Source: Chlorella sorokiniana (lineage: Eukaryota > Chlorophyta > Trebouxiophyceae > Chlorellales > Chlorellaceae). Taken from it: a stretch of DNA of 64,000 nt. Below are positions 32,623-50,073 of this stretch, in pieces. Positions within the stretch are counted from its first letter, which is position 1; the number at the start of each line of letters is the position of its first letter. The stretch lies in the NCBI GenBank assembly GCA_025917655.1, contig CP084616.1, forward strand, positions 1,302,001 to 1,366,000. Direction: 5' to 3'. Below the pieces are notes generated by a model. That model saw only the letters and a program-made list of their open reading frames with translations. It had not been told where the DNA came from and ran no database searches. Position numbers and translations under genes: made by a program.

Positions 32623-32682
32623 GGCTACAGCAGGGATGGGCCCATGCAATCAGACGCGAATGGGCCCATTCCTGCTGTAGCC
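32623..32682. repeat. 23-bp inverted repeat (hairpin)
   Basis: Arms 32623-32645 and 32660-32682 (beginning GGCTACAGCAGG) pair over 23 bp with one mismatch around a 14-base loop. It sits at the outer 3' end of the minus-strand LINE-2 fragment. In the other LINE-2 3' ends (36750 and 46220) only one arm is recognisable. Confidence 0.8.
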
Positions 32683-33815
32683 GAAGCCAACAGACAGGAA
32701 TGGACTGGCCCTAACTGAAAACTCATCAGGCCAGCAGCACACGGGAGTCAAAGCCAAGGCCCGCGCACCCCATCGCGCCCAGGTGAAGATGCAAGATGCA
32801 GCAAGCACAAAAGATGGCAAGCAACCGTGCACACAAGCACGCTGACGAGGATGCAACGCAAGGAAACTGTGAAAGAGTCGAAAAAGGCAAGGAAGAATCC
32901 AACGCAAGCCGGGCAGGGGCGGCAGGGGCTGCGGGAACGGCGACGCAGGCCCACTCAAGCTTCGCTTTGCTTCGCCCCTGCGCTCGCCGTCGCTTCAGCG
33001 TCGGGGCTGGGGCTCAGACTCGCTGCTGCGGGTGTCGTCTCCAGCCAACGACAGACGGTAGCAATGGTGCACAAAGCTGGCCACCGCCACCGGATCCTGC
33101 TCAATGAACTGTGCCGAAGCTCCCTGCCCCGCCAACGGGCCGCTCGGCGGACTATGACCGACACCCCAAAGGGACTCACTGTAATCAATCCAAAACACTT
33201 GAGACGTAAGAGCGCCCCCTCAAAAAAAAAAAAAAAAAAATCAGTCCAAAACAGAAAAAAAGACTCACTGTAATCAGCCCGCAGGCGGGCATACTTTGGG
33301 CAGTCAAACACCTTGTGATGCTCGTCCTCCACAACACCCATCGAGCAATGGGCGCAGGTCCGGCTGGGCCTGTCCAACCCCTCACGCCTCCCAGTCTCCA
33401 CCCGCAACCAATGACAGCCCGTGCGGAACCTGGCCAGGCTGGCCATGTGCGCACAGTTGTCAACCTCGGTCAGATAAGGTTGCGGGCGACGGAAGTACTG
33501 AACACGCGTGAGGCCCCGACTCACATTAGCGCAGTAATACCGCACTTTGGGCTGGGACGGTGCTCCATGCAGGACGCCCTCGACGTAGGCCTCGTCAGTG
33601 AGGGCGCAAGCCTCGCCGACATCAACTTGGTAGGGCTCCCCACCATCAAGGGGACCCAAACCCAAGCTGCGAAGGTATCCTACAACCTGGGTCTCCCTTT
33701 CCCTGGCGCGCACGGCTGTGAGGCGGGCCCGCGTGGCCTCCAGCACGGCTGAGCACCAAGAACCAAGTGCGGGTGGGCCTTGATGGCATCCGACCAGCTC
33801 AATCTCCCCCATGCA
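32638..33815 (-). mobile_element. LINE-2 fragment, 3' part, minus strand
   Basis: The 3' portion of a second non-LTR retrotransposon family. The coding part (about 33818 down to 32955) ends ORF2 with YLTEVDNCAHMASLARFR, TGCHWLRVETGRREGL and a Cys/His cluster CAHCSMGVVEDEHHKVFDC, the zinc-binding tail common after LINE reverse transcriptases. The 3' UTR follows and shares long blocks with 36480-36870 and 46030-46290. It is 5'-truncated and interrupted by a short A-tailed insertion at 33188-33261. Lying tail-to-tail with eIF4G, its 3' UTR faces the eIF4G 3' end. Confidence 0.8.
33188..33261. mobile_element. Very short LINE-1 3'-end insertion with target-site duplication
   Basis: A 74-bp insertion into the LINE-2 fragment, flanked by a 15-bp direct repeat GACTCACTGTAATCA (33173-33187 and 33262-33276). 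Inside are TAAGAGCGCCCCCTC plus A19, which is the LINE-1 3' terminus, preceded by an inverted piece of the same 3' end (ACTTGAGACG). This is a retrotransposition product with extreme 5' truncation and a 5' inversion, as made by twin priming. Confidence 0.8.
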
Positions 33816-34308
33816 CACTCAATCGGTCAAGCACTCGCAGCGACACCGCCTTCCCTGGCGCGCACGGCTGTGAGGCGGGCCCGCGTGGCCTCCAGCACGG
33901 CTGAGCACCAAGAACCAAGTGCGGGTGGGCCTTGATGGCATCCGACCAGCTCAATCTCCCCCATGCACACTCAATCGGTCAAGCACTCGCAGCGACACCG
34001 CCTTCCCTGGCGCGCACGGCTGTGAGGCGGGCCCGCGTGGCCTCCAGCACGGCTGAGCACCAAGAACCAAGTGCGGGTGGGCCTTGATGGCATCCGACCA
34101 GCGCAATCTCCCCCATGCACACTCAATCGGTCAAGCACTCGCAGCGACACCGCCTTCCCTGGCGCGCACGGCTGTGAGGCGGGCCCGCGTGGCCTCCAGC
34201 ACGGCTGAGCACCAAGAACCAAGTGCGGGTGGGCCTTGATGGCATCCGACCAGCTCAATCTCCCCCATGCACACTCAATCGGTCAAGCACTCGCAGCGAC
34301 ACCGCCTT
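33690..34308. repeat. 152-bp tandem satellite, main block (about 4 copies)
   Basis: The landmark CTGAGCACCAAGAAC recurs at 33749, 33901, 34053 and 34205, exactly 152 bp apart, and copies are nearly identical. The unit includes TCAATCGGTCAAGCACTCGC and ends CAATCTCCCCCATGC. Its first copy is continuous with the 5' end of the LINE-2 fragment, so part of the unit is LINE-2 coding sequence read on the minus strand. Because 152 is not a multiple of 3, it is not a coding repeat. Confidence 0.9.
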
Positions 34309-35980
34309 CTCGGGTGTGCGCCCTCCTCCCCCTCTGTCCCCGTGTCTTTCTTGCAGATGAGCATGCCACTTGGGCCCCACCCGCCCGTCTTCGCCACGTG
34401 TGGGCACACCTGCGCACCGCTTACCTCTACGCTGTGTGGCAGATGCGCGGCCGGCGAACTCTTGCGGGCCAGCCCACCTCGCCGGCCAGCGTGTGCGGTG
34501 CCACGGTAGCAGCGGTGCTGGCTGCCATCAAGCGGGACTGGGCGCGGGCCACGCACAACATGCGCCGGCTGGACGGCACCTATGCTGAGTGGTTCCGTGG
34601 CCGCGACACCTCCCTCCGTATGGGCCAGTTCAAAGCGCGGTGGACCCACAGGGGCGCGCTTTGTGTTGTGGAGGCGGGTGCTATGCGGTTGCGCTTCAGC
34701 CTGTCCCACCCGGTGGCCGCGCCAGCGGAGGACCCTTCTGCGTCTCGGGTGCCTGCAATTGCCCCTGCGTCCTGCCTTGGTCCCTTGCCCCCTCCACGCC
34801 TGCAGCTCTCCCCTGCCTCCGCTCACCCTGGTGGAGCCTCACCTGCGCCTCTCCCTCTCGCGGGGCCGCTGCTGAGTATGGAGCGTGAAGGCGGGGCAGC
34901 CCCTTCAGGCGGCGGGGCAGCAATGGCACGGGCTGCTCCACGCGCGGGCGTCGGTTAACTCTCCGCCCTGCCCTTTTCTGGCTGGGGCCCTCCTCTTCTT
35001 TGCGGGGCGCTTTCCCACGGCCTCAGCGGCCTTCTTGTCATTTTTATACTCGACCGTGCTGCTTCCACTCCCTTTTGGGCCATGCGATACAGCCTGACTT
35101 CTGTTCATCTTTACATGCGCGCTGCTGGGGCTCCTTCCATTCCTGCAGGCGGCGGCAGTTGGGCGGCCGGCAGCGGCAGCGGCGATGGCGGCAAGTGCGT
35201 GTGTAGTGGCGCGGCGGGTGATGGGCGTTCGCCACCGTGTGTGGCAACGTGCCGGCGGGGTCCGCCGCCCCCCGCCCGGCTTGCCTTGCGGCACCCGCGC
35301 CGCCGGTCCTAGCGGGCCGGCAGGCACACCTGCGGAGCGCGTACATGCCCTTGCTGTCGGTAGTCGTGTGCCCGCTGGCCCTCGGCTTGCCCCGTCCTTG
35401 CTCTTTGCATCCATTGGTTGACGGTTCCCCAGCGCTCGCCTCCTGCGTTGACTTGTCCCTGTTCCCATGGCTCCCTCCAGCACGCTTCCACACTCGATTT
35501 CCTCGCCCCTTTCTGAGTGGCTTGCGCCTTCCCTTTCCATGGCCCCCTCCTTTTCTTAGCCTGCCCCCTCCTGGACGCCCCCTTCTCCCTGTCCCAGTAC
35601 GCCCCCCTTTTTTTTGTCTTGGCCTGGTTGCCTTTGCGTCTCTTCCGTGGTGGGTTGCTCCATCCTCGCCTCGCGTCTTTCAGTTCTTTGCCTTGCCCTG
35701 TTGTGCCGCTGCCTGCCCCAGTCTGGCGGTTGCCGGGATCTCGCGTTTCATCTGCCTTCACAGCGACATACCGAGCACACACACACACAAAAAAAAAAAA
35801 GAAAAATCTGCATACCACCCCCGTGACTGCATGCCACATCTTGCTGTCACATGCGCGTTCGCGCTGCTGTTTGGCTGCCTCATCGGTCATGATGCTTCGT
35901 GGCTTCGGCCTACCTACGCTTCTTGACATCCCCCACGTCTCAAGTGTAAGAGCACCCCCTCAAAAAAAAAAAAAAAAAAA
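34309..35980 (+). mobile_element. LINE-1 copy, 5'-truncated, about 1.67 kb
   Basis: Almost the same sequence as 44112-45787 (a handful of differences by eye, roughly 99% identity). It starts inside the C-terminal part of ORF2 (CGGGTGTGCGCCCTCC) and runs through the 3' UTR to GAGCACCCCCTC and an A-tail (about 35963-35980). It is inserted in the 152-bp satellite, which resumes at once after the A-tail. I see no target-site duplication; part of one satellite unit is missing across the junction. A recent copy. Confidence 0.88.
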
Positions 35981-36177
35981 GTGCGGGTGGGCCTTGATGT
36001 CATCCGACCAGCTCAATCTCCCCCATGCACACTCAATCGGTCAAGCACTCGCAGCGACACCGCCTTCCCTGGCGCGCACGGCTGTGAGGCGGGCCCGCGT
36101 GGCCTCCAGCACGGCTGAGCACCAAGAACCAAGTGCGGGTGGGCCTTGATGTCATCCGACCAGCTCAATCTCCCCCA
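35981..36177. repeat. 152-bp satellite, second block
   Basis: A partial unit plus one full unit (landmark at 36115) between the truncated LINE-1 copy and the LINE-2 fragment. It ends in CAATCTCCCCCATGC, exactly where LINE-2 sequence begins. Confidence 0.85.
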
Positions 36178-36874
36178 TGCCGGATTTGCCCCCACTGCTC
36201 GATGGGTGTTGTGGAGGACGAGCATCACATGGTGTTTGACTGCTCGAAGTATGCCCGCCTGCGAGCCGATTACAGCGAGTCCCTTTTTGGGGTCGGTCAG
36301 GGTCCGCCCAGCGGTCCGTTGGCGGGGCAGGGAACCTTGGCACAGTTCCTTGCGCAGGATCCGGTGGCGGTGGCTAGCTTTGTGCACCGCTGCTACCGTC
36401 TGTCGTTAGCTGGAGACGGCACCCACAGCAACGATTCTGAGCCCCAGCCCCACCGCGAGGCGGCCCCGGCTTGAGTGGGCCCACGTCGCCGTTCTCGCGG
36501 CCCCTACCAGCCCGTGCCCGGCTTGCGTTGGATTCTTCCTTGCCTTTTCTGACTCTTTCACAGTTTTTCCTTGCTCTGCATCCTTGTCATCATGCTTTGC
36601 GTGCATGCTTGCTTGCCATCCCGTGTGCTTGCTGCGTCTTGCATCTTCACCTCGGCGCGATGGGGGTGCGCGGGCCCGGGCTTTGACTCCCGTGCGCTGC
36701 TGGCCTGATGAGTTCCCGGTTTCGAGGGCCAGCCCGTTCCTGTCTGCTGCCTTCGGCTGCAGCAGGGGTGGGCCCATTTGCGTCTGAGTTGCATGGGCCC
36801 TATGCCCCGTCCGCGAGGGACAGTGATTGTCCCGAAGGCAGACGTTAAACACGTGTAACATAACATAACATAAC
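36178..36874 (+). mobile_element. LINE-2 fragment, plus strand, with (ACATA)n tail
   Basis: Begins at CCGGATTTGCCCCC and codes RICPHCSMGVVEDEHHMVFDC (the Cys/His tail), KYARLRADYSESLFG and on to a stop near 36473, then a roughly 380-bp 3' UTR. The 3' end is a short pentanucleotide repeat of the type ACATA (36856-36874) instead of poly(A). Lacking most of ORF2, it is a 5'-truncated insertion. It sits precisely between CCCCATGC and ACTCAATCGG of the satellite unit. Confidence 0.82.
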
Positions 36875-37180
36875 ACTCAATCGGTCAAGCACTCGCAGCG
36901 ACACCGCCTTCCCTGGCGCGCACGGCTGTGAGGCGGGCCCGCGTGGCCTCCAGCACGGCTGAGCACCAAGAACCAAGTGCGGGTGGGCCTTGATGGCATC
37001 CGACCAGCGCAATCTCCCCCATGCACTCTCAATCGGTCAAGCACTCGCAGCGACACCGCCTTCCCTGGCGCGCACGGCTGTGAGGCGGGCCCGCGTGGCC
37101 TCCAGCACGGCTGAGCACCAAGAACCAAGTGCGGGTGGGCCTTGATGGCATCCGACCAGCTCAATCTCCCCCATGCCGTT
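36875..37180. repeat. 152-bp satellite, third block (two copies)
   Basis: Two units with landmarks at 36959 and 37111, again 152 bp apart. The block ends in CAATCTCCCCCATGC, where the long LINE-1 copy begins. Confidence 0.88.
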
Positions 37181-37181
37181 C

Positions 37182-39038
37182 AGCGCTTTGCAGCTGTTGT
37201 GCAGGCGCAGCGCCTTACTGTGCAGGTGGATGACGTTGCAGTGGGCATTCCCGTCAAGTCTGTCCTTGGCTACCTCCCGGCGGACCATTGGGTTGTGGAG
37301 CTGCGCAGCCTGCCCTCTCAGTTCGTCGTGAGTGGCACCACGGAGGCCCTGCTGGCTGTTTTTGGATACGACGCGGCCAGCGGTGTCTCTGTTGTTCATG
37401 AGCGAGCAGGTGTGGCTGCCGTTGGGCCTGGGCAGGAGGCCCATTTGCCTGTTCTGGATATGATTGAGGCAGTGGTCCGGGTGCCTTATCCCCACGCGGG
37501 ACTGCCTCGCCTGCCGCGGGTGGTACAGGGGCTGGGGTGGTCTGCTCAGGTCGTCTTGCGTCCCTGTGTCTTTGAGGGGGGCGTGTTGTCTTGCGCCGCG
37601 TGCGGCCTGCATCTGGGCAGCAGCCAGACGCGGGGCTGCACCCAGGCGTGCGGCCCGGTATGCTCTCCGCGTTTTGGGACCGGCGGCATCACGCCGGCTG
37701 CTGCTGCCGCAGCCTTGGCGGCGCCTTTGGGCGGCGGCGCCCGGCCGCTGCCAGGGGGCAGCGGCCAGGTCTGGGCCTGGCGGATGTACCTGCTGCCCCC
37801 TTGGCCGCTGGGCCTGCTGCCGCCCCGGGTGGTCCCGTTGCCCCGCGGGCCCCTCCTCCCTCCCCTCCCCTTCCTGCAGAAGAACCCATGCCGCAGGCCG
37901 TGTTGGAATACGATCAACGTCCCTATATGGCACCACAAATGGGCACATACTAATTAACCTCCGGGTTGGCGCTTTTAACAGGTTATGGGCCCCAATGCGC
38001 TAGATGGGCGCGCTGTCACATACACCCACTGGTCGTGGGTTCGATTCCCATCACGGGACATCCAGGTTTCCGGCCTGTAAAACGTTTCTCCACTCGGAAG
38101 CGGGGGAGCAGCCCTGCCTTCACGAACGTGGTTAGGTACGAAGCGAGCATACGGAACGTTGCTCGGGGAGTGTTGGAATACGATCAACGTCCCTATATGG
38201 CACCACAAATGGGCACATACTAATTAACCTCCGGGTTGGCGCTTTTAACAGGTTATGGGCCCCAATGCGCTAGATGGGCGCGCTGTCACATACACCCACT
38301 GGTCGTGGGTTCGATTCCCATCACGGGACATCCAGGTTTCCGGCCTGTAAAACGTTTCTCCACTCGGAAGCGGGGAGCAGCCCTGCCTTCACGAACGTGG
38401 TTAGGTACGAAGCGAGCATACGGAACGTTGCTCGGGGGGAGTGTTGGAATACGATCAACGTCCCTATATGGCACCACAAATGGGCACATACTAATTAACC
38501 TCCGGGTTGGCGCTTTTAACAGGCCGCGCCCGCAGTGCAACGTCCCGAGGGAGAGCCTGGGTTTGATGTGGCTTGTGATTTTGTGGCGGAGGAGTTGGAT
38601 TGTTCTGCGGCCGAGGCAGAGCAGATTGTTCTTGCGGCTCGTGAGGCGCAGCCTGCGGTCTACAGAGATGCGGCCCACGCCTCTCGCCCGGGTGACTTGC
38701 CTCGTGCTTTCAGATTGGCTCTGCATGCCCAGGCTGTTGTTTTGTTGGGCGAGCCGCGGGCTGCGGCTTTGGAGGTGGCCCCGCTTGCGGATTCTGGGAG
38801 GCGGTGGGGGCGCCTGGGTCGTCGCGTCCTGCGGCCGCCCCCTCCCTCCTCTGCTTCCCCCGCCCAGGCCCATACCGCCCACCAAGCTCTGCCAAGCGTG
38901 GACCTTGGCAAAGGGCCCTGCTGGCACCCAGGGCCACCTGCCATCTGCTTCTGGCCCTCGCCGCTCGGCGCGTTTGTCGGCTCCAGCCGAGGCGGGTGCC
39001 CACAGCTGGTTGACAATTGCGACGCGGGCGGCGCCTGA
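37182..39038 (+). pseudogene. LINE-1 ORF1 protein
   Basis: Open from the left boundary: AVQRFAAVVQAQRLTVQ, VDDVAVGIPVKSVLGYL, HWVVELRSLPSQFVV and VLDMIEAVVRVPYPHA. A Cys-rich segment follows (LSCAACGLHLGSS...CTQACGPVC) that resembles a zinc knuckle of LINE ORF1 proteins, then a Pro/Gly-rich stretch. The TRIM cluster interrupts it at 37901. After the cluster the frame goes on with AEELDCSAAEAEQIVLAAR and ends TGA 39036-39038. The likely role, from the family, is nucleic-acid binding or chaperone. No ATG can be fixed. Confidence 0.65.
37901..38521 (+). mobile_element. TRIM-like miniature LTR element, tandem (LTR-int-LTR-int-LTR)
   Basis: Three 80-bp terminal repeats (37901-37980, 38171-38250, 38442-38521), each starting TGTTGG and ending TTTTAACA, separate two interiors of about 190 bp. 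The last bases before each following repeat are purine-rich (CGGGGAG, CGGGGGGAG), like a polypurine tract. The outer ends are flanked by a 5-bp duplication GGCCG (37896-37900 and 38522-38526), typical of LTR-type integration. The interior has a tRNA-like stretch with a perfect B box GGTTCGATTCC (38038-38048). It carries no protein. The repeats are near identical, so the insertion is young. It lies in LINE-1 ORF1. Confidence 0.8.
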
Positions 39039-40096
39039 GCGGGGCGCACGTCTGGACACGGTTCTTCCACCGGTTGCGGCAGCAGGAGCCGCAGCCGGCC
39101 CCGCAGATGAGTCGTTTTGATTGGCGGGCCGCTCGCCCTGCCCAGCCCTTGCGCCTCGTGGCGGTCAATGCTAACGGCCTGCGTGATGCTGCTAAGCGGC
39201 ACCAGCTGCTTGAGCGGTTCATTGCTGGTCCTTGGCATATGCTGCTTGTGTTTGAGGCGCATGCTGCCTCTGCGGAGGAGGTGGCAGGCTGGGCACGCGA
39301 GGGCACAGGGCGCGGCTCGCCTTTGCGGGAGCAGCTTTTGCTGCCCCGCACACTAGCTCTTCTGCTGGGGTGGTTGCCTTCATAAAGGCCACCGCCCCCG
39401 TGGAGGCCGTCACGCTGGCGGCTGTCCCGGCCCAGGAGGGCAGGCTTCTCCATCTTTCCTTCTCCTATGCAGGCCTTCCCTTTTCAATCCTTGGCTGTTA
39501 TGCGCCCACGGAGGCGTGCAACCGCCCTGCATTTTTCTCCAGGTCCCTTGCTGCAGCAATCCCCACCGACCGCCTTGTGCTCATGGCTGGCGATTGGAAC
39601 CACGTTTCTGATCCCTTGGACGTTGCCGGCGCTACCGCCCTTTCACGGCATCGATTTGCCGGCGCGGAGGAGTTTGCTGCGGTGGCGGCTCAGCGCAACC
39701 TGGTGGATGTGTGGCGGCGGCTCCACCCGGCGGCACGTGCAGTCACGCACGTAGCCTCCGGGGCTGCGGGCGGGCGCGCTTGGACCGTTGGTATGCGGCA
39801 GCGCCCCGCTTGCAGGGATTAGCAGCGCAGGCATCCTTCATGGCTTCCCTGGCGATCACCTCGCTGTGGATGTCCATTTGTCGCCCCCTTCCGTCGTCCC
39901 TGCTGGCCCTGGGCGCTTCCGCCTCCCTGACCACTTCCACTCCGACCCAGATTTTGTCGCTTTTGTCCGCCAGCACATCCACACCTTTGCAGAGGAGCAC
40001 CCCGTGCAGCCTGGCGCCCGCCGCGCTTACTGGGTTGCACTCAAGGCCCACCTCTCCACCCACGTCGTGGCATTCACTGCAGCCCGGCGGCGGCAA

Positions 40097-40716
40097 TGTT
40101 GGAATACGATCAACGTCCCTATATGGCACCACTAATGGGAACATACGAATTAACCTCCGGGTTGGCGCTTTTAACAGGTTATGGGCCCCAATGCGCTAGA
40201 TGGGCGCGCTCTGTCACATACACCCACTGGTCGTGGGTTCGATTCCCATCACGGGACATCCAGGTTTCCGGCCTGTAAAACGTTTCTCCACTCGGAAGCG
40301 GGGGAGCAGCCCTGCCTTCACGATCGTGGTTAGGTACGAAGCGAGCATACGGAACGTTGCTCGGGGAGTGTTGAAATACGATCAACGTCCCTATATGGCA
40401 CCACAAATGGGCACATACTAATTAACCTCCGGGTTGGCGCTTTTAACAGGTTATGGGCCCCAATGCGCTAGATGGGCGCACTGTCACATACACCCACAGA
40501 TCGTGGGTTCGATTCCCATCACGGGACATCCAGGTTTCCGGCCTGTAAAACGTTTCTCCACTCGGAAGCGGGGGGAGCAGCCCTGCCTTCACGATCGTGG
40601 TTAGGTACGAAGCGAGCATACGGAACGTTGCTCGGGGGGAGTGTTGGAATACGATCAACGTCCCTATATGGCACCACAAATGGGCACATACTAATTAACC
40701 TCCGGGTTGGCGCTTT
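40097..40716 (+). mobile_element. TRIM-like element, second tandem copy
   Basis: Same organisation: terminal repeats 40097-40176, 40369-40448 and 40642-40716 (the last slightly incomplete at its outer end), with interiors 40177-40368 and 40449-40641. It lies in the endonuclease-to-RT linker of LINE-1 ORF2. No clear target-site duplication, because the outer end is incomplete. It is very similar to the copy at 37901 and therefore of similar, recent age. Confidence 0.78.
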
Positions 40717-41157
40717 CGGCGAGCGCCCTACACGCTGGTTTCACATGTTGGACCGAGCTGCCTTACCAAACCAGCCCCCGGCGGAGCTCTTACACCCATC
40801 TTGGCGGCGAAGCAGACCAGCACACCCGGCCGTGAACTTGCCTCAACCCGGGCGGTGGCCTTCTTTCTGGGCCTCTTCCACTCGGAGGCTACCGACTCGG
40901 GGCGGTTGTTGGACTGGATGCCACCCTGTCCCCTGACGAGGCGGCTGCCACTCTAGGACCTGCTGGTGGGCGATGCCGAGGTGCAGGCTGTGTTTTGCCA
41001 CTTGGCACCAGCCCTGGCCTGGATGGTCTGCCGTATTCCTTCTACGTGACGTTCTGGTCTGAGCTGCGCCCGTTCTTCCCGGGCATGGCTGATGAGGCCT
41101 TGGCTGTAGCCTGGCCGCGCTGATGAGGGTAGCCTGGCAGCTGGGGTGGAGCCGTTC

Positions 41158-41508
41158 TGTTAAAAGCGCCAACCCGGAGGTTAATTAGTATGTGCCCATT
41201 TGTGGTGCCATATAGGGACGTTGATCGTATTTCAACACTCCCCCGAGCAACGTTCCGTATGCTCGCTTCGTACCTAACCACGATCGTGAAGGCAGGGCTG
41301 CTCCCCCGCTTCCGAGTGGAGAAACGTTTTACAGGCCGGAAACCTGGATGTCCCGTGATGGGAATCGAACCCACAATCTGTGGGTGTATGTGACAGCGCG
41401 CCCATCTAGCGCATTGGGGCCCATAACCTGTTAAAAGCGCCAACCCGGAGGTTAATTAGTATGTGCCCATTTGTGGTGCCATATAGGGACGTTGATCGTA
41501 TTTCAACA
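41158..41508 (-). mobile_element. TRIM-like element, single unit, inverted
   Basis: The simple form: terminal repeats 41158-41237 and 41429-41508 around one 191-bp interior, on the minus strand. Flanks share GTTC (41154-41157 and 41509-41512), a 4-bp and possibly 5-bp target-site duplication. It is inserted just before the RT domain of LINE-1. It looks whole for a non-coding element and defines the unit at about 351 bp. Confidence 0.8.
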
Positions 41509-44500
41509 GTTCCTGCCCTCTGAGGTTACGGCTGGCCTCATTGTCCTGCTGCCCAAGCCTGGCACCGCTGACGCCCGGCAGCTTGCCTCCCACCGCCCCA
41601 TCACCCTCCTGAATTGTGACTACCGCCTGCTAGCTAAGGTGTTGTCGGCCCGCTTCGCTGGGCCCCTTCTCTCCGTCATCGACCCCACCCAGACCGCCTT
41701 CTTACCCGGCCGTTGGATTGGCGACAATGTCCTGCTGCACCTTGAGGAGGTGGAGTACTTGAGAGAGCAGGATGCGCCTGGCTGCATCGTCTTCCTGGAC
41801 TTTGAACAGGCGTACGACAGGGTTGATCGCCCTTGGCTTTTTGATGTCATGCGCCGCATGCGCTTCCCGCAGCTTGCTGTGCGTTGGGTGCAGCTGATGC
41901 TGTCCGGGTGCACTGCCATGGTGTCCCTGAACGGCTATTACACCCCAGCCTTCCCACTAGCACGCAGTGTGCAACAGGGCAGCCCCCTTAGCGTTTTGTT
42001 GTATCTCATTGCTGCACAACCCCTCGCAGCTTCCTTGCGCCGTGCGCAGCAGCAGGGCGTTTGCAGGCCCCTGCTGCTGCCTGGGGGCTCCCCTGCTCCA
42101 ATCTCCCACCAACATGCAGATGATATCACCATCCATGTCTTGGCCCCGCGTGACGCGCACGCCGCCCTGGCGGGGCCTGTGGCCGACTTTTGCGCAGCCA
42201 CCCAGGCCAGGCTCAACCTGCGCAAGTGCAAGGGCATCTTGTTTGGCGATCAGTCCACCATCGACCCTGCAACGCGCTTGTGTGGCGTCACTGGCGTGCG
42301 CTTCCCTTCGCCGTCAGAGTCCATCCGCCACCTCGGCATTCACCTGGGCCTTGACGCCCAGGTGGCCACACAGGCAACCTTCCAAGTTCTCGTGGTAAGG
42401 CTGAGGGAGGTTGCTGAGCGTTGGGCGCGGCACGAGCTGTCCTGGCTGGGGAGGGCCCACGTGGCCAAGCAGGTGCTGGCGGCCATGGTGGTGTATCACG
42501 CCACCTTTGTGCACCCGCCGCCTGCCATGTGGCGCCGCATTGTTAGCGTCATTTTCTCTTTTGTGGGTGGCATGTCACCCTCTGATGTCCTGCGCGGTGC
42601 TGCCGTTAGCCACCCAGCCCGCCACACTGCTGCCTTGCCGTGGTTGGAGGGGGCATTAACTTGGTTGCCCCCGACGTGCATGCTGATTGCTTGCGTGCCA
42701 AGGTCACCGCCCGCCTTCTGCAGCCAGGCCGTCATGCTTGGAAGCTCCTTGTTGCGGCGCGCCTGGTGGATGCCGTCCCTTCCCTTGGGCCCGCCATTGC
42801 TGTTAGCGGGCTGCAGGTCACTACACGCCTCCTCCCACCCCGTCTGGCAGCTTATTTGAGCGGCTTCCAGCAAACGCTTCCACACCGCCTCCTCCCCCAC
42901 CGCGGCTCTCACACCACCAAGTCCTGGCGGAGCGCCTCTTCCACAACCGCCAGGTCCGCGGGCCTGATGGCGCCGTGCTCGACCCCGTCAGCCCGGCGTG
43001 GGAGCCGCTGGCCGCAGCTGGCATCTATACGGTGGGCCGCTTGCGGGATGCGATGCTCGCGGGGCCCACTCTGGCCTTGCATATTGCTTGGGGCTGCGTG
43101 CCTGCCTCCTGGCGTGCGGTGGCGGACCAGCCGCCGCCGGCGGGGTGGCAGCTTTGCCGCGACGGGGCGGCCGAGTGGGTGCGCCGGCAGTTGCCGGGGC
43201 TGCCCGGCCCTGTGCACTACGCTGTCCGGGGTGATGGCAGCCTGCGCCCCCTCTCGGCGGCGCCGGCCCTCCCGGCTGGCACCGTATGGCAGCCCTGCTG
43301 CGTGGTGGGGGCGGCCGCCCCATGCTGCTCGGCGCGTGGGATTCCGTCTTCGTGGACCCCACCGTGTGGGGCTTTGGCAGCGTGGACCTCTTGGGGTTCA
43401 CCGTTAAGGCAGCCACACAGCGGCGCATCCACCTGGCAGCCCGGCAGCGCTGCGGCCCGCGATACCTTCCTTCGGCGGGCTGCAGGCCAGCCCTGTGGCG
43501 GCAGCCTGCAGATGAGCCAGGCCCGTCTGCTGCCGCCTCGGGCTTGCAAGCGTTGGAGCTACGCTGGGCCTCCTCCTACGACACGCGGCTTCACGAGCGG
43601 GTCATGTCTCGCCGGCGGGCAGCAGAGTGGGAGGTGGATCTCCTGCCGTGTCAGCGCCCGGGCCTGCGGCAGCGCCTTGCCGTCTTTGAACGGGTGGCGC
43701 AGCGGCAGCATGCTGAGGAAGAGCAGTTGCAGCAGCTTCAGCCACAGCCGGCCCCACCACCAGCTTGGCCTTTGAGGGACGACACAGTGGATGCAGCGGC
43801 AGCGCCGGCGGGCCTCAATGAGGCTGCCCAAGCGGAGCGCGCTGCGGTGCGCGGTGTATGGCGCCGCCTGCGCGAGGCAGACCTGCCCCGTGAGCAGTAC
43901 ACTGTGGCATACCGCGTGCTGCATGGGTGCCTGTATGTGGGCGCCTTCCTTTGCCACATTCGGGTCGTGCCAGCGGCAGATGCGTTGTGCCAGCACGGTG
44001 ATTGTGCGGCAGCAGCGGATCCGCCCCTTGATGGGCTGACCCATGCATTCTTGCTCTGCCCCGCCGTGGCCGCTGCTGCCGAGTGGGTCTGTCGTGTCTT
44101 TGCGGCTGTCTCGGGTGTGCGCCCTCCTCCCCTCTGTCCCCGTGTCTTTCTTGCAGATGAGCATGCCACTTGGGCCCCACCCGCCCGTCTTCGCCACGTG
44201 TGGGCACACCTGCGCACCGCTTACCTCTACGCTGTGTGGCAGATGCGCGGCCGGCGAACTCTTGCGGGCCAGCCCACCTCGCCGGCCAGCGTGTGCGGTG
44301 CCACGGTAGCAGCGGTGCTGGCTGCCATCAAGCGGGACTGGGCGCGGGCCACGCACAACATGCGCCGGCTGGACGGCACCTATGCTGAGTGGTTCCGTGG
44401 CCGCGACACCTCCCTCCGTATGGGCCAGTTCAAAGCGCGGTGGACCCACAGAGGCGCGCTTTGTGTTGTGGAGGCGGGTGCTATGCGGTTGCGCTTCAGC

Positions 44501-45802
44501 CTGTCCCACCCGGTGGCCGCGCCAGCGGAGGACCCTTCTGCGTCTCGGGTGCCTGCAATTGCCCCTGCGTCCTGCCTTGGTCCCTTGCCCCCTCCACGCC
44601 TGCAGCTCTCCCCTGCCTCCGCTCACCCTGGTGGAGCCTCACCTGCGCCTCTCCCTCTCGCGGGGCCGCTGCTGAGTATGGAGCGTGAAGGCGGGGCAGC
44701 CCCTTCAGGCGGCGGGGCAGCAATGGCACGGGCTGCTCCACGCGCGGGCGTCGGTTAACTCTCCGCCCTGCCCTTTTCTGGCTGGGGCCCTCCTCTTCTT
44801 TGCGGGGCGCTTTCCCACGGCCTCAGCGGCCTTCTTGTCATTTTTATACTCGACCGTGCTGCTTCCACTCCCTTTTGGGCCATGCGATACAGCCTGACTT
44901 CTGTTCATCTTTACATGCGCGCTGCTGGGGCTCCTTCCATTCCTGCAGGCGGCGGCAGTTGGGCGGCCGGCAGCGGCAGCGGCGATGGCGGCAAGTGCGT
45001 GTGTAGTGGCGCGGCGGGTGATGGGCGTTCGCCACCGTGTGTGGCAACGTGCCGGCGGGGTCCGCCGCCCCCCGCCCGGCTTGCCTTGCGGCACCCGCGC
45101 CGCCGGTCCTAGCGGGCCGGCAGGCACACCTGCGGAGCGCGTACATGCCCTTGCTGTCGGTAGTCGTGTGCCCGTCAGCCCTCGGCTTGCCCCGTCCTTG
45201 CTCTTTGCATCCATTGGCTGACGGTTCCCCAGCGCTCGGCTCCTGCGTTGACTTGTCCCTGTTCCCATGGCTCCCTCCAGCACGCTTCCACACTCGATTT
45301 CCTCGCCCCTTTCTGAGTGGCTTGCACCTTCCCTTTCCATGGCTCCCCTCCTTTTCTTAGCCTGCCCCCTCCTGGACGCCCCCTTCTCCCTGTCCCAGTA
45401 CGCCCCCTTTTTTTTTTTTTTTTGTCTTGGCCTGGTTGCCTTTGCGTCTCTTCCGTGGTGGGTTGCTCCATCCTCGCCTCGGGTCTTTCAGTTCTTTGCC
45501 TTGCCCTGTTGTGCCGCTGCCTGCCCCAGTCTGGCGGTTGCCGGGATCTCGCGTTTCATCTGCCTTCACAGCGACATACCGAACACACACACACACAACA
45601 AAGAAAAACGAAAAATCTGCATACCACCCCCGTGACTGCATGCCCCATCTTGCTGTCACATGCGCGTTCGCGCTGCTGTTTGGCTGCCTCATCGGTCATG
45701 ATGCTTCGTGGCTTCGGCCTACCTACGCTTCTTTAGATCCCCCACGTCTCAAGTGTAAGAGCACCCCCTCAAAAACAAAAAAAAAAGAACCAAATGCGTG
45801 TG

Positions 45803-46290
45803 GGCCCCTGCCCGCCTGTGCCCGGCTTGCGTCGGATTCTTCCTTGCCTATTCTGACTCTTTCTTTTTCTTTTTTTTTTTTTTGAGGGGGTTGCTCTTAC
45901 ACTTGAGACGTGGGGGATCTTAAGAAGCGTAGGTAGGCCGAAGCGACGAAGCATCATGACCGATGAGGCAGCCAATCAGCAGCGCGAACTCTTATTTTTT
46001 TATTATTTTTAATATTCTGACTCTTTCACATTTTCCCTTACATTGCACCCTTGTCATCGTGCTTTGCATGCATGGTTGCTGCCATCCCGTATGCTTGCTG
46101 CAACTTGCATCTTCACCTCGGCGCGGTGGGGGTGCGCGGGCCCCGGCTTTGACTCCCGTGCGCTGCTGGCCTGATGAGTTCCCGGTTTTGAGGGCCAGTC
46201 CATTCTTGTCTGCTGGCTTCGGCTGCAGCAGGGATGGGCCCGTTTGCGTCTGAGCTTGTTGGGCCCTATGCCGTGTCCGCGAGGGACATT
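45803..46290 (+). mobile_element. LINE-2 3' UTR fragment, interrupted
   Basis: Matches the 3' UTR of the LINE-2 copies (CCCGCCTGTGCCCGGCTTGC, then CATTTTCCCTTACATTG, GACTCCCGTGCGCTGCTGG and GTCCGCGAGGGACA). It is split by an inverted LINE-1 3' end at 45864-46012. It marks the right boundary of the repeat nest. Confidence 0.75.
45864..46012 (-). mobile_element. Short inverted LINE-1 3'-end insertion
   Basis: A T-rich tract then GAGGGGGTTGCTCTTACACT, the reverse complement of the LINE-1 3' terminus, running on through its 3' UTR to about 45985. Flanked by a 15-bp duplication TATTCTGACTCTTTC (45849-45863 and 46013-46027). A severely 5'-truncated retrotransposition into LINE-2 sequence. Confidence 0.8.
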
Positions 46291-46536: not shown

Positions 46537-49500
46537 TTAAAACTTGAACTTGTTCCGCTTGGCGTCTCCTCCTGCCTTCTCTGCTGCCTTGCGCTTTTGT
46601 TGCGCGGCCTTTGCAGCCACCATGTCTGCACAGCATGGGAAAGAACATGCTTATTGCATTGCAGCTTGATGTTGGCATGCAGCCGCTGCTTGCGCAAAGC
46701 AACGATCTTGCATGTCTCGCACCGACATGCTTTTGTGCTTGCTCACCTGAAAAGTCTTCCCGCCCTGCCGCTGCGCGCTGCTCGGCCACACGAATTTCGT
46801 AAAGGCTGCGCAGGGCCTCGTCATCTAGGTTCTCCAGCTCCTGAGGGGAAAAGAGGGGCGGTGCAAGTTTGCGGCAACCTGGCAGCTGGCGGTGCAAGCT
46901 GGCACCAAACTTCGCAAGCAGCACACAGATGTGACCAGAAAACAATCTGGAAGGGAGCGAGAGCATGTGACAGGAGCCATGCCATGAGCGAGAGCATGTG
47001 ACAGGAGCCATGCCATGAGCGAGGGCATGTGACAAGAGCCATGCCATGCCATGCCCTTACCGCAGGGTCGATGGACACGTCAACATCGCTGGGCATCTCG
47101 CGGCGCAGTGCCTCCAGCCGCTTCTGCAAGCAATATAACAAGGAATGGGTAACAAGCAGGTTGAGCTCTTTCATCGGAATCGAATGTGGAGGTGGTTGGA
47201 TCCCGGTCTCGGTTGCAGCGGCAACAGGCAGCAGCAACCATGCAGGCGCCCCACTCGCTTGCCTGGGCCGCGATGGACATTTTCTCCTTGCTTGCTGCTG
47301 GCATGACATATGTGTGCTCGCTGCCCATGAGCGTGCCTGCTGCAACCGATGCCTTCTGCTGCTCCAGCACGGTGTACAGCTGCTTGGGCCCCTCCGACGT
47401 CTTGCGCAGGTCAATCTCCGAGGGCGTCTCGATGCCGCTGGGCAGGCTGCTGGCCAGGCCTGACGCCACGCTGGCGTAGCCATCAGCCAGGCTCTCTGTG
47501 TCCGCCTGGTCCTGATCCTGCACCAGGAAAGAGGGGGAGGACTAAAGCATGCGCTGAGGCAACCCCAGACCGGTGAGCCTGCCTTAAGCGAGAAATAGCG
47601 TAACAGGCGGCGGGCCGGCCCACCTCTTCCTCCTCGCTCTCCTCCTCGTCTTCTTCCTCGCTCTCTTCCTCCTCGCTTTCCAGTTCTCCCCAGCGCACCA
47701 CCTTGTCCACTGCTGCCTCGTCCTCGTCGACCTCTTCCTCTTCCGTCCCGAACACGTTGCCATAGATGGGGTGCCAAACTCGTCAACCGGGGGCTTGCCC
47801 CAGCCGCCTGCGGGGTGGGTCGCGGCAGGAGATGCTAGCAACCACAATGTTGTGCACCAACGGTTCTGGCAGGTTCAAATGCACCTGGGTGGTATCCAAA
47901 CTGCGCGCCAGGCGGGATGGGGGCGTTGAGGCCCGGGATTTTAAGGGAGGGGTAGCTGGGAGGGGGGCCATAGCGCTGCGCCAGGGGAGACGGGGGGGGT
48001 GTCAATGCAACTTAGTACACAACAATGTGCTGTGCCGGCTGTCCAATCAACACCTATCCTTTTCACCTGCATGTTGACAAGCCAGGGCGGCGGGGAGCCC
48101 TCCGTCACACCAAGCGCCTCTTGAAGGGCCGGGCTCAGCACGCCTGCAATATGTAGGGGAGCAGGGGGCGCGTGTGGTCAACAAAGAGGCAGGGTGAATG
48201 GCCTGTTAACCAGTGCCAAAAACCTTTCCCTTGCACCTCCTGGACGTAACCATACCCGCACCGCGCCCAGCCCTCCCCGTCCCACCGCACCAGGCTGCGC
48301 ATGGGTGATGGCCGCCTCAAACTCTTTGCCCTCGTAGTACATGTCGCCCGGCCCCGATAGCTTGGGCTTGGTCTGGTACTTGAAGAAGGCGTCGTGAAGC
48401 ACCTGGGGTGGGGAGGACGGGGACATAAGGTTTGCAGGGCTGGAAGCACATGCAGGGGGCACTGCAAGCATTGCAGGCACGGCTGGCAAGTGGGAACCGC
48501 CCACCTACATCCAAACACACCAGCACCACTGCCAGAAACGCAGCAGTACACACCTGGTAGTCGATGTCCAGCTTGCCCATCTTAGGCTGCATGCGTTCCC
48601 GTGCCTTTTGCTTCATCTTCTGGCTCTCCGCCTTCTCCAGGTACGCCTGCCGCATCTCGCCTGCGGGACAGGGTGGTGGGGATGGGTGGGGAGTGATGCC
48701 GGGCAGGAACCCTGGCGGCAGCCAGCAAGGGCATACGTGAACCAGGCGGGACGAGAGAAGCATAAAGCAGGCACGGGGCAACCAGGCGGCGCAGGCGCGC
48801 AGCGCTGGCCCAAACCTGATGCCCGCCCCACCAATGCCGGTGGCCTCGATGAACTCGGGCAGCTTGAAGGGCGGCTTCTCCAGGCCACGTTTGCCCTGCA
48901 GGTACTTGCGCTTCTGGCTCCAATGCCGCGGCACCGCCACAGTGTTGCGGTACGACTGCGCCCACAAACAGGAGCGGTGGGCATACATGCACGTCATGCG
49001 CTGGGCAGCAAGGAGGAGGGCGATGGCAGGATGCCATGCAAGCCGCTTCACCTGCCCCCCATGCAGCCGTGCATGCGCAGCTCAGCCAAGCCTGTGCACG
49101 CGCTGGCCCCACCCCCCGCCCACACACACCACAAGTCCTCACCTTCAAGTATACCAGCAGCTTGGGGTCCTGCGCAGTGACGTCCCACACCTCCACCACC
49201 TCTGGCCGCTCGCACGCTTGCTTCAGCTCCGCAATTTTCAGCCGACTCGCTAGCTTGCGCTTCTTCCTAGACAGACCCGCCTCCTCACCCTCGCTGTCGT
49301 CGTCATCGCCGCCGTCTTTGCCCTCCGCCGCCCCCTCCTCCTTGCCCTGGCCCTCATCTTCGTCGCTGCCTGGCTCGCCGCCCTCGCCCTCCTCGCCACC
49401 CAGCAGCCCCTCCACCGTGCCAAAGCGCTGCAGGATGCGCTGGAAGTCCGCCGACGCCGACGGCTGCTGCTCCCCGCCCTCCCCTCCTGCGGGCGCTTCA

Positions 49501-50073
49501 GGTGTCACGCCCAGGCCCAGCCCACCGGCTTGCGGCATGACCTCATCGCCGCCGTTCTCCGCTGCTGCTGCGGGGCCCACCAGGAAGTCAAACTCAAGCG
49601 GGGCCGATACATATTCAATCTCCACCTCCTCCTCGCCATCCTGCAAATGATAATCAAGCAGCCGCTAGGCATGCCATGAGCTCGGCAGCAGCGTCAACAG
49701 GGAGATGCCAGCATCAGTGTGGGGAGCACAGGCCAAACAGCACTGGACAATACCTGCGGCTTAGAGGGCTTGGCGGCCTGCTCCTGTGCTTTGGCCTGCT
49801 GTATGGCAGCGAGCGCCTCCCTGTAGTTTGTGATGCCAAATGGACAACGGCATGCGCCGCTTGTGAGGGCAAGTGTCGAGGCGAAGGGTGCTGTCCCCCC
49901 CGCCCGCCACCGCAGCCCTCGTGGACAATGGCCGCGCGATCACCCCGCCTTGCTCGCGCCCACCTCTCTGCTCTCTTGTTTTGCTTGCGTTGTTTGGCCT
50001 TGAGCTTCTTCTTTTGTGCCGCAGAGAGCTTGGTGCCATTCTCCTGCGGGGCGGTCTCCCCGTCGGCCGCCAT
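46537..50073 (-). CDS. SF3B2: Splicing factor 3B subunit 2 (SF3b145)
   Basis: Component of U2 snRNP SF3b, which holds the branch-point duplex; it pairs with SF3B4. The ATG at 50073 gives MAADGETAPQENGTK and a Lys-rich segment; no SAP domain is seen, as in plants. Conserved blocks in order: VEIEYVSAPLEFDFLV, an acidic stretch, RLKIAELKQACERPEVVEVW, DVTAQDPKLLVYLK, VAVPRHWSQKRKYLQGKRG, LEKPPFKLPEFIEATGI, KMKQKARERMQPKMGKLDI, VLHDAFFKYQTKPKL, MYYEGKEFEAA, SPPPWLVNMQRYGPPSYP, LKIPGLNAPIPPGAQFGYHP, GGWGKPPVDEFGTP, VRWGELESEEEESEEE, SGIETPSEIDLRK, and a C-terminus with EDFSDMVAAKAAQQKRKAAE ending RNKFKF. One frame break is at the G4 run 47768-47771 (GTPIYGNVFGTEEEE with one more base). Confidence 0.95.
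46954..47046. repeat. Three 31-bp tandem repeats in SF3B2 intron
   Basis: A unit beginning GAGCGAGAGCATGTGACAGG occurs three times head to tail (46954, 46985, 47016), followed by CCATG slippage. It lies in the intron between the VDVSIDPA and ELENLDDEA exons. No spacers. Confidence 0.88.

What the first reader, a model, noticed from the sequence alone, without database searches (positions are those of the whole stretch)
37901..41508. A TRIM-like miniature LTR element carrying a tRNA-like module in a green alga
Five interiors of about 190 bp alternate with eight 80-bp repeats that begin TGTT and end AACA. A purine tract precedes each downstream repeat, and the first insertion has a 5-bp target duplication. 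These are marks of a terminal-repeat retrotransposon in miniature. Unusually, the interior contains a tRNA-like segment with a perfect Pol III B box (GGTTCGATTCC) right after the 5' repeat, mixing SINE-like and LTR-like traits. I know of no described algal family of this form.
Basis: partly seen in the sequence, partly recalled or inferred. Interest (0 to 1): 0.8.

Follow-up and report, generated by a model that had tools for sequence, protein, structure and literature searches.

The report
Tiny retrotransposon with a tRNA-derived interior
Three copies of a 350-base "copy-and-paste" parasite, too small to code for anything, sit in an older mobile element; it has the landmarks of miniature Copia-type retrotransposons and, unusually, a degraded tRNA sequence right beside the site where its DNA copying starts.

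Summary
In detail: 8 repeats of 80 bp (one cut to 75) and 5 interiors of 190-193 bp, in two LTR-INT-LTR-INT-LTR arrays (A, B) and one inverted single copy (C), in the region of an L1-like LINE. Array A has a perfect 5-bp target duplication, C a 4-bp one, B none (3' end truncated).

The TRIM reading is supported and sharpened. The first 12 bases of every interior are exactly complementary to nucleotides 28-39 of (human) initiator tRNA-Met, the anticodon-loop priming known from some Copia elements. With TG..CA ends, purine tracts and the 5-bp duplication, this is a Copia-type TRIM; its mobilising partner was not seen.

The tRNA-like part is real but degenerate. Its T arm is found by tRNA models, and the segment aligns over its whole length with human elongator tRNA-Met better than 500 of 500 shuffles. 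It does not fold as a tRNA, its A box is little better than chance, and default searches call no tRNA.

TRIMs with tRNA sequence are already described (Helenus, 2024), but with the tRNA in the LTR. Here it lies in the interior, against the primer site: a new variant of a known kind. Its role is unproven. Host unidentified; host genome not available.

The parts
37901..38521 (+). Array A, LTR-INT-LTR-INT-LTR (L3I2), complete
   Evidence: Three identical 80-bp LTRs and two interiors
37896..37900 (+). Target-site duplication GGCCG, left of array A
38522..38526 (+). Target-site duplication GGCCG, right of array A
37901..37980 (+). LTR R1 (80 bp, TGTT...AACA; TATA at LTR base 24, TTTT at base 73)
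37981..38170 (+). Interior I1 (190 bp)
37981..37992 (+). Primer-binding site GGTTATGGGCCC, complementary to human initiator tRNA-Met 28-39; present in 5 of 5 interiors and nowhere else in the window
37989..38060 (+). tRNA-like segment of I1, aligned end to end with human elongator tRNA-Met (interior bases 9-80); its first 4 bases overlap the primer-binding site
38031..38051 (+). Variable-loop end and T arm of the tRNA-like segment, with B box at 38038-38048
   Evidence: Model R1, 17.4 bits, E 0.0043 over 64 kb
38165..38170 (+). Polypurine tract GGGGAG before LTR R2
38171..38250 (+). LTR R2
38251..38441 (+). Interior I2 (191 bp), polypurine tract GGGGGGAG
38442..38521 (+). LTR R3
40097..40716 (+). 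Array B, L3I2, last LTR lacks its 5 terminal bases; no target duplication
40097..40176 (+). LTR R4 (3 private changes)
40177..40368 (+). Interior I3 (192 bp), polypurine tract GGGGAG
40369..40448 (+). LTR R5
40449..40641 (+). Interior I4 (193 bp), polypurine tract GGGGGGAG
40642..40716 (+). LTR R6, truncated to 75 bp
41158..41508 (-). Copy C, LTR-INT-LTR (L2I1, 351 bp), inverted; 4-bp GTTC duplication at 41154-41157 and 41509-41512
41429..41508 (-). LTR R7 (5' LTR of copy C)
41238..41428 (-). Interior I5 (191 bp) of copy C, polypurine tract GGGGGAG
41158..41237 (-). LTR R8 (3' LTR of copy C)
41456..42859 (+). Reverse-transcriptase reading frame of the host LINE (frame opens inside copy C; LINE sequence from 41509)
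   Evidence: Pfam RVT_1, E 1.7e-25; LINE-1 ORF2 protein, E 4.3e-34

Best explanation
This is a TRIM: a non-autonomous, non-coding LTR retrotransposon of the Copia type, about 350 bp in its simple form, inserted three times in the region of one decayed L1-like LINE. Shown here: the LTR ends, the polypurine tracts, the exact 12-nt site complementary to the anticodon arm of (human) initiator tRNA-Met next to the LTR, and the target duplications (5 bp at A, 4 bp at C). Inferred: transcription from the LTR (a TATA motif is in 8 of 8 LTRs); first-strand priming by a 3'-truncated initiator tRNA-Met; plus-strand priming at the purine tract; integration by the enzymes of an unseen autonomous Copia element. 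The interior starts with a degenerate full-length tRNA-derived segment (best of four human tRNAs: elongator tRNA-Met) whose T arm and B box are intact. I think it was captured from a tRNA or a SINE head. Its most likely present activity is weak Pol III initiation, or none; it is not needed to explain the element's movement.
For: Anatomy. Primer site: GGTTATGGGCCC equals the reverse complement of bases 28-39 of the human initiator tRNA-Met printed in PMC8216282 (comparison), lies directly after the LTR in 5 of 5 interiors and nowhere else in 64 kb. PMC10886601 section 3.6 states that anticodon-loop priming is known from Ty5 and Drosophila Copia, and that fungal Helenus, most with anticodon-loop sites, and the Copia families similar to them at the primer site make 5-bp duplications. 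tRNA-derived segment: score 140 to human elongator tRNA-Met, 0 of 500 shuffles and 0 of 500 other window pieces as high (maxima 113 and 111); sequence-only tRNA profile E 0.0003 to 0.0014 and structure model E 0.0043 to 0.02 over the window, with the five units as the only 5 hits up to E 10 under default filters. TATA in 8 of 8 LTRs. Tandem arrays occur in 129 of 289 plant and algal TRIM subfamilies, L3I2 being the most frequent form in maize (PMC4717578 passages).
Against: No autonomous Copia element with the same ends was found in the window, and no host genome is held. Copy C shows 4, not 5, duplicated bases; array B shows none. The initiator tRNA used was human, not the host's. The tRNA-like segment does not fold as a cloverleaf and is no more stable than shuffles; ARAGORN finds no tRNA by default; Rfam finds nothing at gathering scores and, in array A up to E 10, only 15-nt T-arm matches to a tmRNA family of the tRNA clan (9.6 bits, E 1); relaxed ARAGORN hits are as frequent in shuffles (191 of 300). 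The A box has 2 mismatches of 12, which 12.5% of random positions and 1 of 12 other B-box-like sites match at the same spacing.
Confidence: 0.87

Rival explanations
1. A Pol III-driven TRIM whose promoter sits in the interior. The tRNA-like boxes would start transcription at about the LTR-primer-site junction (expected from recalled tRNA-gene rules), and the only TTTT of a unit, at LTR base 73 of the next LTR, would end it. One transcript would equal one INT-LTR period. That lacks the terminal redundancy needed for strand transfer from a simple copy, but read-through of a tandem array would supply it, so the L3I2 array would be the moving form.
For: Exact B box in 5 of 5 interiors; TTTT only at LTR base 73 within a unit; two of three insertions are L3I2. 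In both arrays the first purine tract is GGGGAG and the second GGGGGGAG. In array B the two outer LTRs share G at base 6 while the middle has A, as expected if the array was reverse-transcribed as a unit. Cassandra arrays give read-through multi-unit transcripts (PMC7215508 passages).
Against: The A-box match (2 mismatches of 12) is close to chance: 12.5% of random positions, 1 of 12 other B-box-like sites at the same spacing, 7 of 12 at any spacing tried. L3I2 arrays are common in TRIMs without small-RNA sequences. The LTR has its own TATA. The array variants are few and partly homopolymer lengths, and the outer LTRs of B differ by three changes private to R4. No transcript data.
Confidence: 0.2
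2. A primer-capture mimic. The tRNA-Met-like segment beside the initiator-tRNA-Met primer site imitates tRNA-Met so that methionyl-tRNA synthetase or the particle protein delivers the primer tRNA, as the PBS-adjacent tRNA-like element of HIV-1 does with LysRS.
For: Of four human tRNAs the segment fits elongator Met best, and the primer site fits initiator Met; a CAT lies at the anticodon position of that alignment; the segment touches the primer site. Precedent: PMC9315659 abstract.
Against: Isotype is not settled: among 209 tRNAs from viral contigs the top scores are Asp (160, 158), then Met (154) and Ala (152) (set biased, its loci were fetched by the T-arm 21-mer), and for the 5' half alone the best of that set is reached by 93 of 200 shuffles. 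U33 is not kept, and predicted folding is not a cloverleaf. In Helenus no complementarity was found between tRNA-like part and primer site.
Confidence: 0.1
3. A SINE or simple satellite rather than an LTR element.
For: tRNA-like segment with B box, tandem units.
Against: TG..CA ends, 5-bp duplication, primer site, purine tract; the array ends in AACA directly before the duplication, with no A-rich tail.
Confidence: 0.03
4. A fragment or deletion derivative of a longer element of the same family that happens to hold a tRNA gene remnant.
For: Some TRIMs arose by deletion of part of the interior of an autonomous element (Figure 1 legend of PMC10886601).
Against: All three copies share the same compact structure and ends, apart from the truncated end of B; no longer copy in the window. 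Not testable in the genome.
Confidence: 0.15

Closest known systems
Helenus (TRIM with tRNA-derived sequence; Kojima 2024, PMC10886601)
   Same: Miniature size (Helenus 311-1263 bp; here 351 bp), TRIM anatomy, tRNA-derived stretch with conserved GGTTC of the B box that rarely encodes a working tRNA; in fungal families the dominant primer is the anticodon loop of initiator tRNA-Met and duplications are 5 bp.
   Different: In Helenus the tRNA sequence is in the LTRs by definition; here it is in the interior, against the primer site. The only plant Helenus reported there is from Selaginella (120-bp LTR, 85-bp interior).
Canonical TRIMs of plants and algae (Gao et al. 2016, PMC4717578)
   Same: LTRs, small size, L3I2 tandem arrays; reported in Chlamydomonas reinhardtii and Volvox carteri (passages).
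   Different: No tRNA-derived segment is mentioned ('trna' occurs 0 times in the main text held).
Cassandra (5S rRNA TRIM; PMC7215508)
   Same: Small-RNA-gene-derived Pol III-type sequence in a TRIM, tandem arrays (passages).
   Different: 5S, not tRNA; in the LTR, not the interior; different primer-site sequence (TGGTATCAGAGC).
Retrozymes
   Same: Short non-coding non-autonomous LTR elements.
   Different: Retrozymes carry hammerhead ribozymes (title in the reference list seen; placement in the LTR recalled); none found in array A.

Membership tests
TRIM | Two direct LTRs with TG..CA ends around a short non-coding interior, total under 1 kb | tested here: met
   80-bp LTRs, 190-193-bp interiors; last LTR of B truncated
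TRIM | Primer-binding site next to the 5' LTR | tested here: met
   12-nt complement of human initiator tRNA-Met 28-39 in 5 of 5 interiors
TRIM | Polypurine tract before the 3' LTR | tested here: met
   5 of 5
TRIM | Short target-site duplication | tested here: met
   A 5 bp, C 4 bp, B none (truncated): 2 of 3
TRIM | Interspersed copies and solo LTRs in the genome | not testable with these tools
   No host genome held; three insertions and no solo LTR in the window
Copia-mobilised element | 5-bp duplication and anticodon-arm priming | tested here: met
   Array A and the primer site; copy C has 4 bp, array B none
Copia-mobilised element | Autonomous Copia partner with shared sequence | not testable with these tools
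   No further copy of LTR or interior in the window; no genome
Helenus | tRNA-derived sequence located in the LTRs | tested here: not met
   The segment is in the interior, bases 9-80; the default-filter model hits fall in interiors only
TRIMp3 (Pol III-promoter TRIMs) | Functional Pol III promoter | tested here: inconclusive
   B box exact, A box close to chance; no transcript data
SINE | No LTRs, LINE-type tail, longer variable duplications (recalled definition) | tested here: not met
   LTR ends and 5-bp duplication
Retrozyme | Hammerhead ribozyme in LTR | tested here: not met
   No ribozyme hit in array A up to E 10, none in the window at gathering scores

The most novel reading that the evidence does not exclude
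The tRNA-Met-like segment is a working primer-capture device: an LTR retroelement carries, touching its initiator-tRNA-Met primer site, a tRNA-Met mimic that recruits the Met-tRNA machinery. This would be an independently arisen counterpart of the PBS-adjacent tRNA-like element of HIV-1.
Probability: 0.1. Interest if true: 0.75.

Novelty: new variant of a known kind. Interest (0 to 1): 0.42.

Why it matters
In the work seen here, TRIMs with Pol III-type sequences have the small-RNA sequence in the LTR. An interior version beside the primer site asks whether the tRNA piece acts as a promoter, a primer recruiter or a relic. Its position makes these separable: an interior Pol III start cannot give a terminally redundant RNA from a simple copy, but can from a tandem array. 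The published Helenus survey screened LTRs (section 3.1), so interior cases may be overlooked in other genomes.

Tried and rejected
Looking for copies elsewhere: exact patterns from the LTR and interior gave 0 stretches in viral contigs and 0 in genome contigs; the 621-bp array A gave no match in plasmids or phages. By their descriptions these collections hold viruses, bacteria, archaea and plasmids, so this says little about an algal nuclear element. A 16-mer across the LTR-primer-site junction gave one viral contig, which on reading and by repeat search shows no such element; I take it as chance.

Relaxed ARAGORN gave tRNA calls in all five interiors, but 191 of 300 shuffles and 123 of 300 window pieces gave them too, so I dropped that line. 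RNA folding of four stretches gave no cloverleaf and no excess stability. The A box was checked after the draft report and proved close to chance. A hammerhead-type origin was dropped.

Rows dropped before the tRNA models: ARAGORN gave 209 tRNAs from loci L002-L026; 140 distinct ones of 71-78 nt other than Leu, Ser, Tyr and Sec remained and 69 were taken, at most 4 per type. Of these, 21 were left out of A2: 10 that hold the exact T-arm 21-mer used to fetch the loci (count checked) and 11 that I dropped by eye as oddly aligned (the four Cys and seven others). The models thus rest on 48. With filters off over 36000-43000, 24 weaker matches follow the five units, the best at 9.8 bits, E 0.13.

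Pfam on 37 reading-frame submissions (35 distinct), out of 94 frames of 200 aa or more in the window and some shorter ones, found RVT_1 in the LINE, DUF382 in two overlapping frames (once below its cut-off) and a Med26 match just below its cut-off, and nothing in the others, including the frames that by eye look like the LINE's endonuclease region.
Full report
What is there. The window holds eight copies of an 80-bp repeat (one cut to 75) and five interiors of 190-193 bp. They form three units: array A at 37901-38521 (three repeats, two interiors), array B at 40097-40716 (the same, its last repeat 5 bases short) and copy C at 41158-41508 on the minus strand (two repeats, one interior). Repeats begin TGTT in 8 of 8 and end AACA in 7 of 8. 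The three repeats of A are identical, as are R5, R7 and R8; R4 has three private changes. Array A is flanked by an exact GGCCG duplication, copy C by GTTC (4 bp), and array B by none. Blastn finds no further copy in the rest of the window. If three insertions were placed at random in the window, their starts would lie within 3257 bases in 0.76% of 200,000 trials.

Where it sits. The frame that begins in copy C and runs to 42859 matches Pfam RVT_1 (E 1.7e-25) and the LINE-1 ORF2 protein (E 4.3e-34) better than R2-type proteins (E 1.3e-10 and weaker), so the host element is an L1-like LINE. With copy C and one 4-bp duplication taken out, the flank is open for the 16 codons before the junction and runs into that frame; with array A and one 5-bp duplication taken out, two of three frames stay open. 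That arrays A and B also lie inside the LINE is my reading of its pieces by eye, with frameshifts between them; Pfam found no domain there. A second copy of the 3' part lies at 34308-35993, 98% identical to 44109-45806.

The LTR-element anatomy. Directly after the LTR, 5 of 5 interiors start with GGTTATGGGCCC, which occurs nowhere else in the window on either strand. It is the exact reverse complement of bases 28-39 of human initiator tRNA-Met, and the only exact complement of 7 or more bases between the LTR-INT-LTR unit and that tRNA (sequence from PMC8216282, passage seen; a zebrafish anti-initiator-Met probe in PMC11417395 holds the same 12 bases, passage seen). Section 3.6 of PMC10886601 says that priming at the anticodon loop is known for Ty5 and Drosophila Copia, both Copia superfamily, and that Copia families with primer sites like those of fungal Helenus make 5-bp duplications. 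A tract GGGGAG to GGGGGGAG precedes the downstream LTR in 5 of 5. LTRs carry TATA at base 24 in 8 of 8 and TTTT at base 73 in 7 of 8. This is a TRIM of Copia type. The enzymes that move it were not seen.

The tRNA-like segment. The B box GGTTCGATTCC is exact in 5 of 5 interiors; GGTTCGANNCC occurs once elsewhere. Models built from 48 tRNAs of viral contigs that lack the exact T-arm 21-mer (checked) find the five units and nothing else up to E 10 with default filters: with structure 17.4 to 15.3 bits (E 0.0043 to 0.02), sequence only 17.1 to 15 bits (E 0.0003 to 0.0014); with filters off over 7 kb the next match has 9.8 bits, E 0.13. E-values of these models are rough. Only the variable-loop end and T arm (21-33 model positions) match. 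Against the four human tRNAs printed in PMC8216282, the interior aligns with elongator Met over the whole tRNA (score 140; 0 of 500 shuffles, 0 of 500 window pieces), with initiator Met 100 (4 of 500 shuffles, 18 of 500 pieces), Lys 96 (17, 7) and Asp 65 (217, 193). The other four interiors score 131 to 145 with elongator Met. The 5' half alone scores 61 with elongator Met (8 of 2000 shuffles), initiator Met 58 (188), Lys 31 (1687), Asp 31 (1395). Results against: default ARAGORN finds nothing; Rfam finds nothing at gathering scores and in array A up to E 10 only 15-nt T-arm matches to a tmRNA family of the tRNA clan, E 1 (overlapping weaker clan members are not shown by that tool); folding shows no cloverleaf; relaxed ARAGORN is uninformative; the A box has 2 mismatches, as do 12.5% of random positions at that spacing, though only 1 of 12 other B-box-like sites; among 209 tRNAs from viral contigs the best scores are Asp (160, 158), Met 154 and Ala 152, and for the 5' half the best of that set is reached by 93 of 200 shuffles. 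So tRNA descent is likely, on the strength of the 3' half above all, and the isotype is open.

How it probably works. Inferred chain: transcription from the LTR, priming by a truncated initiator tRNA-Met, plus-strand start at the purine tract, integration by a Copia enzyme. The role of the tRNA-like part is open. As a Pol III promoter its start would fall near the LTR-interior junction, giving an RNA without terminal redundancy from a simple copy; read-through of a tandem array would supply it. Hints that arrays move as arrays: the same order of purine-tract lengths in A and B, and outer LTRs of B that agree at base 6 while the middle one differs. Both rest on few variable bases, R4 has three changes of its own, and tandem TRIM arrays are common without any tRNA part. 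As a primer-capture mimic it would resemble the HIV-1 tRNA-like element next to its primer site, which binds LysRS (PMC9315659, abstract). As a relic it would need no function.

Comparison with what is known. Seen of PMC10886601: abstract, passages, sections 3.1 to part of 3.6, section 3.6 in full, the Discussion. Helenus are TRIMs with tRNA sequence in the LTR; the screen there was of LTRs (section 3.1). In PMC4717578 (passages only), TRIMs are reported in Chlamydomonas and Volvox, and 129 of 289 TRIM subfamilies have tandem arrays. In PMC7215508 (passages only), Cassandra arrays and two array-forming routes, recombination between LTRs and template switching, are described. My paper searches showed no TRIM with a tRNA segment in the interior; apart from the papers named I saw listings only (20 of 124, 6 of 6, 20 of 21, 15 of 94, 1 of 1 and 12 of 16 papers), and the library holds open-licence PubMed Central papers only. 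The element fails the Helenus definition by position and is best called a new variant of that kind.

Limits. No host genome, so no copy number, no partner and no host tRNA set.

Noticed in passing
33699-34309; 35979-36180; 36873-37176: A 152-bp tandem repeat (4.0 copies) with further nearly identical copies downstream, next to the LINE 3' part.
   Followed up: no
34308-35993 and 44109-45806: Two copies of the LINE 3' part, 98% identical over 1.7 kb.
   Followed up: partly
32638-33186 / 36800-36268; 45666-45989: An inverted pair of about 550 bp (83%) around the 152-bp repeats, and a 324-bp stretch that is 81% identical to its own reverse complement.
   Followed up: no
48317-49078 (-): DUF382 domain, E 5.5e-30, weak and below its cut-off in the overlapping frame 48582-49661: probably exons of a eukaryotic gene.
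   Followed up: no
37981-41428, interiors: In both arrays the first interior ends GGGGAG and the second GGGGGGAG; copy C ends GGGGGAG.
   Followed up: partly
38076-38080 and the same place in the other four interiors: TGTAA, which I recall as the poly(A) signal of some green algae, occurs once in the interior of each unit and not in the LTR; the 5-mer is not enriched in the window against six other 5-mers counted.
   Followed up: partly
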